Below are positions 2,994 to 47,585 of a stretch of DNA of 64,000 nucleotides, in pieces (positions within the stretch are counted from its first letter, which is position 1; the number at the start of each line of letters is the position of its first letter). The stretch is from Chthonomonas sp. (GTDB lineage: Bacteria > Armatimonadota > Fimbriimonadia > Fimbriimonadales > Fimbriimonadaceae), in assembly GCA_016788115.1 (NCBI GenBank), contig JAEURR010000007.1, positions 216,488 through 280,487 of the forward strand, in the 5' to 3' direction. The notes below the pieces were generated by a model that made no database searches, was not told where the DNA came from, and saw only the letters and a list, made by a program, of their open reading frames with translations. Position numbers and translations under genes: made by a program.

Positions 2994-4376
2994 TTACGAT
3001 TCTCGCATGGGTCCAAAGGTGATCCTGACCGCTGGCTGCGGCCAAGCGCTCATCTTCACCCGTTCGGCGAGCGTGACCCCTGGGATCCAGATAGGTCCGC
3101 CCATATCACAAAGTATCGGCAAGCGGCGGCGTGCTGCCAGGGTGAGCTTTGCGTCGGCCAAGATATCGAGGACCCTCTTCTCGGCTCCGAGTCCGAGCGG
3201 GGAGAGCCGATCGGTCGGCTCAGCGGACTTGAAATATAGGTTGCCGATCACCGTCTTTGGGTCGACCGTCGCCACCAGTCGACTCGTCGAGGGGCCGTCT
3301 GCGTGCACGTTTTCTGCGGTGAACTGCCAACCAAACACTTCCGCGACCGTCTCGCCGGGCACGGTCAGTTTGAATCGGAACGGCTCAGTCGGGTGCAGTT
3401 GGCGCAGGTGTAGCTTCACGTCATCGAGTTCGGCCACGACCGCCCCCCCTTCGAAAGTGATCGATCCGGTCCCCTGCCTCACCAGCAGATCTTCGATCCC
3501 ACGAATCTGGTCGTATGTGGCGGTTGCGCCGAGCGCATTGGCCGCGAGCCGAACGGCGCGGCGAACGAGCACTGCTGGAAGCGCCTCGATGTGGGGGCGG
3601 TGAAGGGCAACCTCACAATCGTGCGTCAAAAACGGCATCGGCTCGTTCAGCGGAAACTCCGCTCGCTCGAGCGCGGCCGCGGCGGCTCCGTCCAAAAACG
3701 CATCTTCCTCCGCTACCAGCGCGGTCGTCCGGGCTACCGCTTCCACCACGCTTGGGTTCAGCACTTGAAGCTCAGGCACGACGCGCTTTCGCAGCCGAGC
3801 GCGGGCAAATTGAATGTCGTCGTTGGTCGAATCGTGCAGCCGCGGAATCTCGTGCGCGTTGCAGTACTCTTTGATCTCGTCCCTCGAAAAGCTGAGGAAG
3901 GGCCGTACAATCCTTCCGCGCCGAGCTGGGATGCCTCCGAGACCTCGTAGACCTGCCCCCCGGACGAGGTTCATCAGGACTGTTTCGAGCTGATCGTCGC
4001 GATGGTGCGCGGTTGCGATCAGATGACAACCGGTTTGCCTCGCGGACTGCTCCAGGAACTCATAGCGAGCTTCCCTGCCTGCTTCTTCGATGCCGATCGA
4101 GCGATCGCGGGCTAGGCGGGGGACGTCTGCTTTTCCACTGACGAACGGAATCCCGAGCGACTCACACCATCGGGCGCAATGCTCAAGGTCGGCATCGGCC
4201 TCGGGACGCTGGCCGTGGTGCAAATGCGCGGCGACGATCTCAATACCAAGTGCGTGCAGCGCGTGGGTCAGACAGGCAGAATCGGTGCCTCCACTCAGGG
4301 CGACAAGGACGCTCGATCCTGGCGGAATCAGCCCCGTGCCTTCGAGGTGATCGCGCAACCGCTCGATGAAGGTCAT
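2994..4376 (-). CDS. tilS: tRNA(Ile)-lysidine synthase
   Basis: TilS adds lysine to C34 of the minor tRNA-Ile so that it reads AUA. The PP-loop motif SGGTDS is close to the N-terminus, followed by HLHHGQRPEAD and the ATAHHRDDQLETVLMNLVRG segment typical of the family. The C-terminal TilS domain is present, giving about 460 residues. An upstream GTG at 4403 is also open, but ATG 4376 gives the usual spacing of N-terminal residues before the PP-loop. It diverges from mgtE, leaving under 90 bases for both promoters. Confidence 0.95.
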   Translation of the reverse strand: MTFIERLRDHLEGTGLIPPGSSVLVALSGGTDSACLTHALHALGIEIVAAHLHHGQRPEADADLEHCARWCESLGIPFVSGKADVPRLARDRSIGIEEAGREARYEFLEQSARQTGCHLIATAHHRDDQLETVLMNLVRGAGLRGLGGIPARRGRIVRPFLSFSRDEIKEYCNAHEIPRLHDSTNDDIQFARARLRKRVVPELQVLNPSVVEAVARTTALVAEEDAFLDGAAAAALERAEFPLNEPMPFLTHDCEVALHRPHIEALPAVLVRRAVRLAANALGATATYDQIRGIEDLLVRQGTGSITFEGGAVVAELDDVKLHLRQLHPTEPFRFKLTVPGETVAEVFGWQFTAENVHADGPSTSRLVATVDPKTVIGNLYFKSAEPTDRLSPLGLGAEKRVLDILADAKLTLAARRRLPILCDMGGPIWIPGVTLAERVKMSAWPQPAVRITFGPMRES

Positions 4377-44244: not shown

Positions 44245-44655
44245 ATGGCAAAATCCCTATACGTGGGCAATCTTTCGTACTCGGCTACGGAAGGCGACCT
44301 TATTCAAGCATTCGAGAAGTTCGGCGCAACCGTTGCCCGAATCGTTCAAGGTCGCGGCTTCGGCTTCGTCGAAGTTCCCGATGATCAGGCAGACGCAGCA
44401 ATCGAAGCCCTGCACGGCAGCCAGATGATGGGCCGAACCCTTACCGTTAACGAGGCACGACCGCGCGAGCCGCGAGAGGCCCGTGGCGGCGGTGGTGGCG
44501 GCTACGGCGGCGGCGGCGGTGGTGGTCGCAGCGGTGGCGGCTATGGCGGCGGCGGCGGTGGCGGCTATGGCGGCGGCGGTGGTGGTCGCAGCGGTGGTGG
44601 CGGTGGTCGCAGCGGCGGTGGTCGCGGCGGCAACGATCGCGGCGGACGCTGGTAA
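44245..44655 (+). CDS. glycine-rich RRM RNA-binding protein
   Basis: A 136-residue protein with one RNA recognition motif (residues 3-76). RNP2 is LYVGNL and RNP1 is GRGFGFVEV. From about residue 80 it is nearly pure Gly with Tyr, Arg and Ser (repeats such as GGGYGGG and GGGRSGG). This is the bacterial/plant GRP layout, associated with cold adaptation and RNA chaperone activity. AGGAG lies upstream of ATG 44245. The Gly-rich tail could drive condensation with RNA. Confidence 0.93.
   Translation: MAKSLYVGNLSYSATEGDLIQAFEKFGATVARIVQGRGFGFVEVPDDQADAAIEALHGSQMMGRTLTVNEARPREPREARGGGGGGYGGGGGGGRSGGGYGGGGGGGYGGGGGGRSGGGGGRSGGGRGGNDRGGRW
44485..44650 (+). repeat. GGC-rich tandem repeat encoding the glycine tail
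   Basis: Imperfect copies of GGCGGCGGTGGTGGTCGCAG and related units. Such tracts change length by slippage, so the tail may vary between strains and assemblies. Confidence 0.7.
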
Positions 44656-44673
44656 GCAGCAGCCTCGACTTAC

Positions 44674-44709
44674 GACGGAAGGCACCTCAGGGTGTCTTTC
44701 GTCATTTTT
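44674..44709 (+). terminator. intrinsic terminator of the RRM gene
   Basis: A 13-bp stem with two G-U pairs (44674-44686 with 44691-44703), 4-base loop, and a following ATTTTT. Confidence 0.85.
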
Positions 44710-44797
44710 GGGGCACTGCCCCGACCGATTCGGTGTCAAACAACTTGGACACCACAACGCGATGCCACTAAGAGAACTGCAGACTCAACGAGGACCC

Positions 44798-45400
44798 ATG
44801 CGGGACGTCACCGAGAGCCCCGATCACCAGCCCCAATGGATCATCATTGCGGGCCCAAACGGTTCCGGCAAGTCGACGACCGCGAACCTCTTGCTGCCTC
44901 CATCCATGACGTTCGTCAACGCGGACATGATTGCGCAGTCGATTTCGGGTGTCGCCACGACGACTGCGGACCTGCGCGCTGGGCGCTTACTCGTCAACCT
45001 GCTTGACGAGCTAGAGTCCGACCGCCTCGACTTTGCAGTGGAGACGACGCTGGCCACGCAGAAGCTCATCCCTCGACTCCAGCGCTTGCAAGGCGATGGG
45101 TACGAAACCCACCTGATCTTCATGTGGCTGGAATCGCCCGAATTGGCGGTCGAACGCGTGCGTTCCCGAGTCCGAATGGGGGGTCACGACGTCCCCGAGG
45201 ATACGGTGCGCCGACGCTATGCCCGCGGCCTGAGACACTTTTTTGACTCGTATTGGGAGGCAGTTGACCATTGGCGGATGTATGATAATTCGAGGTTGAA
45301 CGATCCGGTCCGCATCGCTTCGGGGGGAAGGGCCCGGTCATTGGAAGTCAACCAACCCAGCAAGTGGGATCGAATTGTCGAGGAGTTTCGCCGTGGGTGA
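44798..45400 (+). CDS. zeta-toxin-like P-loop kinase
   Basis: A 200-residue P-loop protein. Walker A is GPNGSGKST near residues 18-26; NADMIAQ supplies a zeta-like metal or substrate site; FAVETTLA and the region LIFMWLESPELAVERVRSRV with RRYARGLRHFF match the zeta toxin/AAA_33 kinase group. Zeta toxins phosphorylate UDP-N-acetylglucosamine and stall wall synthesis. ATG 44798 follows a GAGG site; an upstream in-frame ATG 44762 is possible. It overlaps the small gene downstream by eight bases. Toxin activity is not shown by sequence. Confidence 0.82.
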   Translation: MRDVTESPDHQPQWIIIAGPNGSGKSTTANLLLPPSMTFVNADMIAQSISGVATTTADLRAGRLLVNLLDELESDRLDFAVETTLATQKLIPRLQRLQGDGYETHLIFMWLESPELAVERVRSRVRMGGHDVPEDTVRRRYARGLRHFFDSYWEAVDHWRMYDNSRLNDPVRIASGGRARSLEVNQPSKWDRIVEEFRRG

Positions 45401-45590
45401 TCAAGACAAGCAACAGCTAAACGAGATCTTGCACGACGACCACAAGGCCGATGCCACCGTCAAACGGGCCATCGCCGAGGGGTTGCGTGAGAACAAGCTG
45501 CGCGGCAACAAAGTAGCCGTTTGGAATGGCCAAGAGGTCGTGCTCGTCGAGCCCGACGGCATCGACGAAGACGGACGCCCGGCCCCATAA
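45393..45590 (+). CDS. small acidic protein paired with the zeta-like kinase
   Basis: A 65-residue protein reading MGDQDKQQLNEILHDDHKAD at its start and including the KRAIAEGLRENKLRGNKVAVWNGQEVVLV core. The WNGQEVVLVEPDGI element resembles small proteins that neighbour zeta-like kinases in other bacteria (recollection, not checked), where they would act as antidotes. GTG 45393 has a GAGGAG site seven bases upstream, inside the kinase gene. Here it follows the kinase rather than preceding it. Confidence 0.7.
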   Translation: MGDQDKQQLNEILHDDHKADATVKRAIAEGLRENKLRGNKVAVWNGQEVVLVEPDGIDEDGRPAP

Positions 45591-45623: not shown

Positions 45624-47585
45624 ATGCCCCGACTCTTTGCTCACGGCAACGGCCGGATGCTTGTCCAAACAGACCGTTTCGGCATCATCCGCGACCTCTA
45701 CACCCCGCACGTCGGTCTTTGGAATCACCTCAGCGGCCACCCAATTCGGGTCGGCATCTGGGTCGATGGCGCGTTTGTATGGCTGGAGGATCACGCCTGG
45801 AACCGCGAGGCGAGTTTCTCGGCCGGGGCCGTCGGCACCCTGAGGCTGCACCACGGTGCACTCCAGATTGACCTCGTCATCGAGGATGTAATGCTGCCCG
45901 AAGACCGAATTTTCTTGCGGCGATTCTCGTTCACCGATACCGCAAACCTGCCCCGCGAGGTGCGCCTGTTCCAAACTGCGGACACGCGGCTCGCAGAAAC
46001 CGACATCGGCGATACCGCCTTCTACCACCCAGGGCTCGAAGGGATGGTCCACTTCAAAACCACGCATGCCCTGCTCTTCGGCGGTACGACGGATCTCGGA
46101 TCTATACATCAATACTCTACTGGAGTTAAAGATTTCGCTGGCCACGTCGGCACGTGGCCCCAAGCCGAACGAGGCGAGCTGGATATGCGCGCGATGGACC
46201 AGGGTTCGGTTGACAGCACCCATAGCTTGCGCCTGGATGTTCCGGCCGGAGGCACTGCCGCCGCGCAGACCTGGATCATGGGCGGACACGACTTTGCCGA
46301 CCTCGCCCAGCTTCGATCGAAACTGCGGAAAGTCGGATTCAGTACCGCCTTTGCCGAGGCCGATTCGCATTGGTCAGGCTTCGTTGGCCGCGCCGATCTC
46401 GCCGATCATGCCCTGAGCGACCGGGTGCGCACGTTGGTCGAGCAAAGCCTGCATTACGTCCGCACCCAAACGAACCATAACGGCGCAATCCTCGCTGCAA
46501 ACGATAGCGACATCCTCCGGTCGAACCGGGCGACCTACAGCTACATGTGGCCCCGCGACGGGGCGCTTGTCGCGCTAGCAATGGACGACGCCGGCTACCC
46601 CGGCTATGCAGCAGGCCACTTGCACTTCTGCATGCCGCTGATCTCTGAGTCGCAACCCTTCTTCTTGCACAAGTACTCGCCCGATGGCTCGTTTGGAGCG
46701 ACTTGGCACCCGTGGATCATCGACGGCACCCCAGAGGTTCCGTTCCAGCAAGACGAGACTTCTCTCACCGTACTGTCGGCCGTTCGACTGTTGGAGCGAG
46801 AACCCCACCGACCCGACGCCGGTGAGCTCTTCGACCGACTCGTCGCCTTGCCTGCCGACTTCATCGCACGCGCCGTGGACGAGCAGACCGGCCTTCCGGT
46901 GCCTAGCTACGATCTGTGGGAAGAGAGGCGCGGTATCCACTGCTACACGCTCGCAACCAACATTGCCGCGCTTCGCGCAGCCGCGGGGCTCACCAACGAC
47001 TCGACCCAAGCCACCCGGTGGTCGAGGGTCGCCGAGTCTCAGCTTGCTGCCATGCTGAAGCACCTCGTAGACCCCGCTTCGGGACGGCTGCTCCGCTGTC
47101 TGTCCGGCGGCAAGGATCCGCAGCCCGATTCCACCGTCGATTCCGCATGTTTGGCTGTCGGCCTCCTGGGCGTCCTGCCATGGGATCACCCGGCCATGGT
47201 TGCCTCCTACCAGGCAGTGACGGAAATGCTCCTCATGAAGACCGGCATCCGGGGCGTGGCGCGGTACGAGAACGATTACTACTTCCGCCGCGACCACGAC
47301 ATGCCCGGCAACCCATGGATCATTTGCACCATGTGGCTCGCCCAGGCCCAACTGCAACAGGCGAGAACGCTCGATGAGGTTCGCGAGGCGGCGCTGTGGC
47401 TCGATTGGGCCGCAGACCGGGCCGAATCGACTGGCGCGCTCAGTGAGCAGTTTCACCCGCATTCAGGCGAGCCGCTGTCGGTTTGCCCGCTCACTTGGTC
47501 ACATGCCGAGGTCATCCGGACAGCCGCGTTGGTCTCGCGTCGGACGATTGAACTCTCGCATAAGGGGAACGCTCGGCCAGTCTGA
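45624..47585 (+). CDS. glycoside hydrolase family 15 protein (glucoamylase/glucodextranase-like)
   Basis: A 653-residue enzyme. The N-terminal 240 residues are a beta-supersandwich (NGRMLVQTDRFGIIRDLYTPHVG), the rest an (alpha/alpha)6 barrel. GH15 marks include YSYMWPRDGALVALAMDDAGY, the general acid Glu in YDLWEERRGIH, and the general base Glu in GALSEQFHPHSGEP, followed by PLTWSHAEVI. No signal peptide, so it is a cytoplasmic exo-acting glucosidase on malto-oligosaccharides, trehalose or glycogen. A TATCCT lies 12 bases upstream of ATG 45624; no Shine-Dalgarno is seen. Confidence 0.92.
   Translation: MPRLFAHGNGRMLVQTDRFGIIRDLYTPHVGLWNHLSGHPIRVGIWVDGAFVWLEDHAWNREASFSAGAVGTLRLHHGALQIDLVIEDVMLPEDRIFLRRFSFTDTANLPREVRLFQTADTRLAETDIGDTAFYHPGLEGMVHFKTTHALLFGGTTDLGSIHQYSTGVKDFAGHVGTWPQAERGELDMRAMDQGSVDSTHSLRLDVPAGGTAAAQTWIMGGHDFADLAQLRSKLRKVGFSTAFAEADSHWSGFVGRADLADHALSDRVRTLVEQSLHYVRTQTNHNGAILAANDSDILRSNRATYSYMWPRDGALVALAMDDAGYPGYAAGHLHFCMPLISESQPFFLHKYSPDGSFGATWHPWIIDGTPEVPFQQDETSLTVLSAVRLLEREPHRPDAGELFDRLVALPADFIARAVDEQTGLPVPSYDLWEERRGIHCYTLATNIAALRAAAGLTNDSTQATRWSRVAESQLAAMLKHLVDPASGRLLRCLSGGKDPQPDSTVDSACLAVGLLGVLPWDHPAMVASYQAVTEMLLMKTGIRGVARYENDYYFRRDHDMPGNPWIICTMWLAQAQLQQARTLDEVREAALWLDWAADRAESTGALSEQFHPHSGEPLSVCPLTWSHAEVIRTAALVSRRTIELSHKGNARPV

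What the first reader, a model, noticed from the sequence alone, without database searches (positions are those of the whole stretch)
44798..45590. Zeta-toxin-like kinase followed by an overlapping small acidic protein: reversed-order toxin-antitoxin candidate
The kinase has an intact Walker A and zeta-like motifs. The 65-residue partner starts at GTG 45393 inside the kinase gene with a GAGGAG site. In classical zeta systems the antitoxin comes first. The small protein's VAVWNGQEVVLV element is not the epsilon fold. The pair lies between a terminator and the GH15 gene, as an isolated two-gene unit.
Basis: partly seen in the sequence, partly recalled or inferred. Interest (0 to 1): 0.58.

Follow-up and report, generated by a model that had tools for sequence, protein, structure and literature searches.

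The report
Zeta-like toxin with second-placed antitoxin
Two overlapping genes look like a bacterial poison kinase followed by its small antidote, in the reverse of the usual gene order, and the same pair recurs in several bacterial phyla with an antidote that the family libraries searched here do not contain.

Summary
A 200-aa zeta-fold kinase (44798-45400, +; Pfam Zeta_toxin E 8e-12) overlaps by 8 nt a 65-aa acidic protein (45393-45590) without significant match in Pfam, NCBIfam, PADLOC or PHROGs. It is not a one-off: a profile of the small protein finds relatives directly downstream of, or fused to the C-terminus of, related kinases in Bacteroidota, Verrucomicrobiota, Pseudomonadota, Planctomycetota, cyanobacterial plasmids and the window's own (unnamed) phylum. 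Of 113 kinases of this clade, 88 have it downstream, 4 fused, none upstream; most of the other 21 have an unmatched overlapping small ORF by eye. Several loci keep the small gene beside a kinase remnant. The small protein is predicted as one long helix plus a beta-hairpin. The same domain appears, more weakly, upstream of distant zeta kinases, so gene order has probably switched. Best reading: a type II toxin-antitoxin module, toxin first, with overlapping genes and an uncatalogued antitoxin family. Toxicity, substrate and neutralisation are untested. 'Isolated unit' is half right: a terminator precedes the pair, none separates it from the GH15 gene 33 nt downstream.

The parts
44674..44703 (+). 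intrinsic terminator of the upstream RRM gene; 5' boundary of the unit
   Evidence: 13-pair stem plus T run; -22.2 kcal/mol, z -6.3
44790..44794 (+). GAGGA, possible ribosome-binding site of the kinase
   Evidence: sequence reading
44798..45400 (+). zeta-fold kinase, presumed toxin, 200 aa
   Evidence: Pfam Zeta_toxin E 8.4e-12; the model of a clade member matches zeta, PezT and AvrRxo1 folds; Walker A, D43 and ETT conserved
45380..45385 (+). GAGGAG, ribosome-binding site of the small gene, inside the kinase gene
   Evidence: sequence reading
45393..45590 (+). small acidic protein, presumed antitoxin, 65 aa, GTG start, 8-nt overlap with the kinase

Best explanation
A type II toxin-antitoxin module in toxin-first order. 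Shown by sequence: a kinase of zeta fold with an intact ATP site and catalytic-base position; directly after it, overlapping by 8 nt, a small protein of a conserved family predicted as one long helix plus a beta-hairpin; the two families sit together, in this order or as one fused polypeptide, in several phyla. Inferred: the free kinase phosphorylates a small cytosolic metabolite (UDP-GlcNAc as in zeta, or another nucleotide-type substrate) and stops growth. The small protein binds it, probably over the ATP site as epsilon does in zeta, and keeps it silent. The overlapping start couples antitoxin translation to toxin translation, so that each toxin made is followed by its inhibitor despite the reversed order. 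The fused forms carry the same inhibitor in cis, and orphan small genes are leftovers or anti-addiction copies.
For: Conserved linkage: of 113 clade kinases, 88 have the small family downstream, 4 fused at the C-terminus, 0 upstream; by eye nearly all of the 19 unmatched ones not at a contig edge have an overlapping small ORF. Independent test: profile A5 holds only sequences of the window's phylum and of cyanobacteria, yet 37 of 100 loci of other groups have a best hit at E<1e-3, all downstream or fused. Tree of 157 kinases: one branch parts 34 rows without the downstream family from 123 rows that hold all 99 with it (SH-aLRT 85). Fusions L023, L138, L181 and L038. Kinase remnants beside intact small genes: L119, L123, L126 and L227. 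Overlap in 91 of 99 by my start rule, 4 nt in 40 and 8 nt in 12. Plasmid-borne pairs in Nostoc, Geminocystis, Synechocystis and Parabacteroides. Kinase fold: zeta 1gvn Z 14.6, PezT 2p5t Z 14.1, AvrRxo1 4z8v Z 14.7. The small gene has more non-synonymous change than the kinase in 17 of 18 pairs.
Against: No toxicity, binding or enzyme data. The fold is shared with polynucleotide kinase at equal score (4gp7 Z 14.9), so fold alone does not show a toxin. In the fused model the small domain has pLDDT mostly under 50, so its docking is unknown. Small proteins without a kinase exist: 15 of 53 genomes in the window's phylum, of which 3 hold kinase remnants, 2 are cut by a contig end, 1 has it upstream of a distant zeta kinase, 3 are weak matches and 6 look like true orphans. 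On four cyanobacterial plasmids it stands without kinase before a pRiA4b ORF-3 family gene. No DNA-binding domain was found in the small protein, so classical autoregulation is not evident.
Confidence: 0.77

Rival explanations
1. A non-toxic metabolite or RNA-end kinase with a small regulatory or chaperone subunit: the pair is a two-subunit enzyme, not an addiction module.
For: The fold is equally close to polynucleotide kinase, and the best sequence-profile hit in the PDB is the Pnkp1 kinase of an RNA repair complex, E 1.2e-4. Fusions and fixed order also fit an enzyme with a stabilising subunit.
Against: Patchy presence, 46 of 291 genomes of the phylum; plasmid copies; kinase remnants beside intact small genes; Zeta_toxin is the best Pfam model.
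Confidence: 0.16
2. A plain epsilon/zeta or PezAT system whose antitoxin has merely diverged and moved to second place.
For: The kinase is zeta-like in fold and Pfam family.
Against: The small protein is predicted as one helix plus hairpin and no epsilon or PezA match was found. A sequence miss does not exclude very distant descent.
Confidence: 0.04
3. A relative of AvrRxo1:Arc1, the zeta-fold kinase of plant pathogens that also has its antitoxin second.
For: AvrRxo1 heads the Foldseek list (E 2e-8) and shares the toxin-first order (PMC4938570, passages, section 8).
Against: Arc1-like proteins are described as 3-4 short helices with the motif KExFD(x25-27)(Y/L)ExxYY (PMC4938570 section 8); that motif is absent from the small protein by reading, and no Arc1 chain is listed among the PDB matches of the small-protein profile up to E 10. 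The kinase here is 200 aa, AvrRxo1 421.
Confidence: 0.03

Closest known systems
epsilon/zeta (pSM19035) and PezAT
   Same: Zeta-fold P-loop kinase with a small protein partner (fold match). The zeta residues Asp67 and Thr118 (PMC3062530 section 9) have likely counterparts D43 and T84 here, by motif and inferred.
   Different: Antitoxin second, not first; partner predicted as helix plus hairpin; zeta Arg120, which contacts the UDP phosphates, has no obvious counterpart in the ETTLA motif (alignment by motif from memory, not tested).
AvrRxo1:Arc1
   Same: Zeta-fold kinase with the antitoxin gene downstream; best Foldseek hit.
   Different: Arc1 is described as all-helical, about 98 aa, with its own motif; the kinase is about twice as long.
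EzeT of E. coli
   Same: Zeta-type kinase and inhibitor in one chain, as in the fused members L023, L138 and L181.
   Different: In EzeT the antitoxin domain is N-terminal (PMC4803016 passages); here it is C-terminal, mirroring the gene order.
ParD-like/zeta pair Rv0367c-Rv0366c and the TASmania clusters A49 and A123 with T70
   Same: Zeta-family toxin with a non-epsilon antitoxin (PMC6362051 passages; PMC6504116 passages).
   Different: Antitoxin upstream and ParD-like: another antitoxin family and order.
Synechocystis PCC 6803 pSYSG, genes at 3660-4372 of NC_005231
   Same: A member of this clade: zeta toxin gene followed by the small gene with 4-nt overlap (small protein A5 E 1.3e-9).
   Different: A 2016 survey lists sll8001, sll8002, ssl8003, sll8004 and ssl8005 as TA-related genes that did not meet its criteria (PMC4963859 passage); I infer from gene order that ssl8003 and sll8004 are this pair. 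No test of it in the passages seen.

Membership tests
Type II toxin-antitoxin module | two adjacent, co-oriented small genes that co-occur across genomes | tested here: met
   37 of 48 kinase places have the small match directly downstream in the window's phylum; 88 of 113 clade kinases overall
Type II toxin-antitoxin module | partner is a protein under purifying selection | tested here: met
   dN/dS of the small gene 0.03-0.65 in 17 of 18 pairs, one pair saturated
Type II toxin-antitoxin module | toxin inhibits growth and the partner protein neutralises it | not testable with these tools
   needs expression experiments
epsilon/zeta - PezAT family | zeta-fold kinase with Walker A | tested here: met
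   PF06414; 1gvn Z 14.6 and 2p5t Z 14.1 for the clade member L023
epsilon/zeta - PezAT family | epsilon or PezA type antitoxin | tested here: inconclusive
   no such family among the matches; model is helix plus hairpin; distant kinship not excluded
epsilon/zeta - PezAT family | antitoxin gene first | tested here: not met
   kinase 44798-45400, small gene 45393-45590 on the same strand
epsilon/zeta - PezAT family | phosphorylates UDP-GlcNAc | not testable with these tools
   substrate unknown
AvrRxo1:Arc1 | zeta-fold kinase with downstream partner gene | tested here: met
   order; fold of L023 against 4z8q E 2e-8
AvrRxo1:Arc1 | motif KExFD(x25-27)(Y/L)ExxYY in the partner | tested here: not met
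   motif as given in PMC4938570 section 8; absent from the 65-aa sequence by reading
EzeT-type | inhibitor domain N-terminal in the same chain | tested here: not met
   separate gene here; fused relatives carry it at the C-terminus

The most novel reading that the evidence does not exclude
The helix-hairpin domain is a general, so far uncatalogued antitoxin of zeta-fold kinases that works from three positions: second gene, C-terminal fusion and first gene. Gene order has switched while the inhibitor stayed, and on some cyanobacterial plasmids the same small gene has been left, or re-paired, before a pRiA4b ORF-3 family gene.
Probability: 0.5. Interest if true: 0.66.

Novelty: new variant of a known kind. 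Interest (0 to 1): 0.52.

Why it matters
Zeta-like kinases are widely annotated as toxins, often beside an unnamed small gene. This identifies a partner family for a whole clade of them across several phyla, with natural fusions that give ready single-chain constructs. It also offers a direct test of how a toxin-first module avoids poisoning its own cell (gene overlap and translational coupling).

Tried and rejected
Chance ORF: rejected, because the small ORF is conserved, under selection and position-specific.

Known family for the small protein: Pfam, NCBIfam, PADLOC, PHROGs and PDB sequence searches gave nothing significant; the best Pfam lines (Bac_A_amyl_C 0.039, DUF7460 0.07, RelB_like_antitoxin 0.19) are taken as noise. 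Foldseek of its model found no PDB match below E 1.6; a missing match does not show a new fold.

Docking in the fused model: not usable, pLDDT mostly under 50 in the small domain. Viral contigs: direct searches found no relative; the alignment search found 7 distant ones, of which L082 looks fused (weak, E 0.2) and L083 has the small gene downstream. Plasmid and phage searches with the window's small protein: no match.

Kinship of the domain in upstream position: A5 hits L131 (E 3e-6) and L225 (E 3e-4) upstream of distant zeta kinases; L011 only 0.018. Profile-profile comparison gave 88% with L011 and L131 included and 72% with four others (the upstream sequences were picked by eye). I call it likely, not shown. 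Many other distant zeta kinases have unrelated upstream neighbours (some Phd-like by reading).

In print: searches did not bring up a paper on this pair; 'COG4185' had 0 papers. Most subscription journals are not held. I read only passages or single sections of the papers cited.

Limits of the counts: the genome searches return at most 30 loci each (30 of 45, 30 of 56, 30 of 47 places), the best-scoring ones, so the set leans to near relatives. Loci L001, L002, L012-L015, L027-L031, L034, L035, L088-L117, L145, L171 and L222 were left out as duplicates or other matches. In one search two further same-strand hits lay elsewhere in a locus. The Fisher p of 1.6e-27 for co-occurrence ignores relatedness. 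Label changes on the tree are 13 with HMM labels and 4 with by-eye labels, contig-edge rows not counted. The start-codon rule prefers starts near the kinase stop, so the overlap count is partly by construction. My label 'Armat' for the window's phylum in the scripts is a guess; no call names that phylum.

Full report
What is there. The kinase gene (44798-45400, +) and the small gene (45393-45590, +) are as described. The kinase matches Pfam Zeta_toxin (E 8.4e-12). The small protein matches nothing significantly. A strong terminator after the preceding RRM gene sits at 44674-44703. Downstream, a GH15-family gene starts at 45624 on the same strand, 33 nt after the small gene, and no terminator-like fold separates them, so the pair is isolated on its 5' side only.

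Near relatives. In 61 genomes (own, genus, family, order) 9 have the kinase. The 7 close ones, 53-100% identical, all have a small downstream ORF of one family that starts near or before the kinase stop, although a direct search with the window's small protein sees only 4 of them. The two distant ones (37% and 34%) do not.

Wider survey. Annotated plasmid copies in Nostoc, Geminocystis, Synechocystis and Parabacteroides show 'zeta toxin family protein' followed by a 'hypothetical protein' with 8- or 4-nt overlap. Searches with the 12-kinase alignment A3 found matches in 46 of 291 genomes of the window's phylum, 39 of 145 in the phylum of an Opitutaceae locus (Verrucomicrobiota), 41 of 198 in that of a Bacteroidales locus and 37 of 200 in that of a Rhodoferax locus. 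The small-protein profile A5 (29 rows) was run against 11,299 six-frame ORFs of these loci. Among 100 loci from Verrucomicrobiota (30), Bacteroidota (30), Pseudomonadota (30), Planctomycetota (3) and viral contigs (7), none of which fed A5, 37 have a best hit at E<1e-3, all directly downstream or at the kinase C-terminus. After iteration, 113 kinases scoring 160 bits or more divide into 88 downstream, 4 fused and 21 without a hit, 2 of these at contig ends. Reading the other 19, nearly all have an overlapping or abutting small ORF; L022 has none that I recognise, L203 has a broken frame and L082 looks fused. The 54 weaker kinases have 11 downstream, 1 fused, 1 upstream and 41 without a hit; the 12 downstream or fused ones are, by my reading, mostly partial copies of the same clade.

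Tree. On 157 kinases one branch parts 34 rows without the downstream family from 123 rows that include all 99 with it (SH-aLRT 85; the branch to 122 of them 93). Rows of different phyla are interleaved, which suggests horizontal transfer.

Signs of a toxin and its antidote. Kinase remnants stand beside intact small genes in L119, L123 and L126 and in Planktothrix L227, where a 43-residue C-terminal kinase piece, 72% identical to a Nostoc kinase, precedes the intact small gene. C-terminal fusions occur in L023, L138 and L181; L038 is fused in frame too, and L073 looks like a truncated kinase run into the small gene. L067 carries two copies of the small domain. Synonymous change exceeds non-synonymous change in both genes, and the small gene has more non-synonymous change than the kinase in 17 of 18 pairs.

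Against exclusivity. 15 of the 53 genomes with the small protein in the window's phylum lack a kinase at the threshold: remnants in G079, G113 and G072; contig ends in G077 and G114; an upstream position before a distant zeta kinase in G145; weak matches in G064, G097 and G217; apparent orphans in G089, G204, G161, G101, G066 and G214. On plasmids of two Nostoc, of Aulosira and of Tolypothrix the small gene, partly decayed in the last two, is followed by a pRiA4b ORF-3 family gene (PF07929 E 1.4e-13 in one Nostoc) and has no kinase.

Structure. The fused L023 protein gave a confident kinase domain and a poor small domain. The kinase domain matches AvrRxo1 (Z 14.7), zeta (14.6), PezT (14.1) and, equally, polynucleotide kinase (14.9). 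The window's small protein was predicted at mean pLDDT 82 as helix 2-37 and hairpin 41-44/49-52, with no PDB match.

Mechanism and substrate. In zeta, Asp67 is the proposed catalytic base, Thr118, Arg120, Glu100 and Thr128 contact UDP-GlcNAc, and antitoxin side chains block the ATP site (PMC3062530 section 9). Asp43 in FVNAD and Thr84 in ETTLA are invariant in A3 and are the likely counterparts of Asp67 and Thr118, by motif and inferred. No clear counterpart of Arg120 is seen, so UDP-GlcNAc should not be assumed. That the small protein blocks the ATP site is by analogy only.

Verdict. A real, widespread, reversed-order toxin-antitoxin candidate with an uncatalogued antitoxin family; the toxin is of a known kind. 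The biochemistry is open.

Noticed in passing
L228:1501-2941; L230:708-2148; L229:1501-2914; L231:1501-2893: On Nostoc, Aulosira and Tolypothrix plasmids a relative of the small protein stands before a pRiA4b ORF-3 family gene (8-nt overlap in Nostoc) with no kinase: a possible new partner or a relic.
   Followed up: partly
L067:366-873: A downstream small protein with two tandem copies of the domain.
   Followed up: no
L131:1475-2448; L225:801-1953: A relative of the small domain lies upstream of distant zeta-family kinases (antitoxin-first order).
   Followed up: partly
L016:422-844; L018:2252-3531; L231:1-1480: The cyanobacterial plasmid loci hold other TA-like genes nearby (VapC; DUF4433 and macro-domain genes).
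   Followed up: no
window 44483-44797: The kinase frame stays open far upstream through the Gly-rich RRM gene (a 305-aa ORF from GTG 44483); probably an effect of composition, not a longer kinase.
   Followed up: no
L002 (G000:C9:138497-138601): A second, weak Zeta_toxin match (23.3 bits) in the window's own genome inside a 453-aa frame.
   Followed up: no
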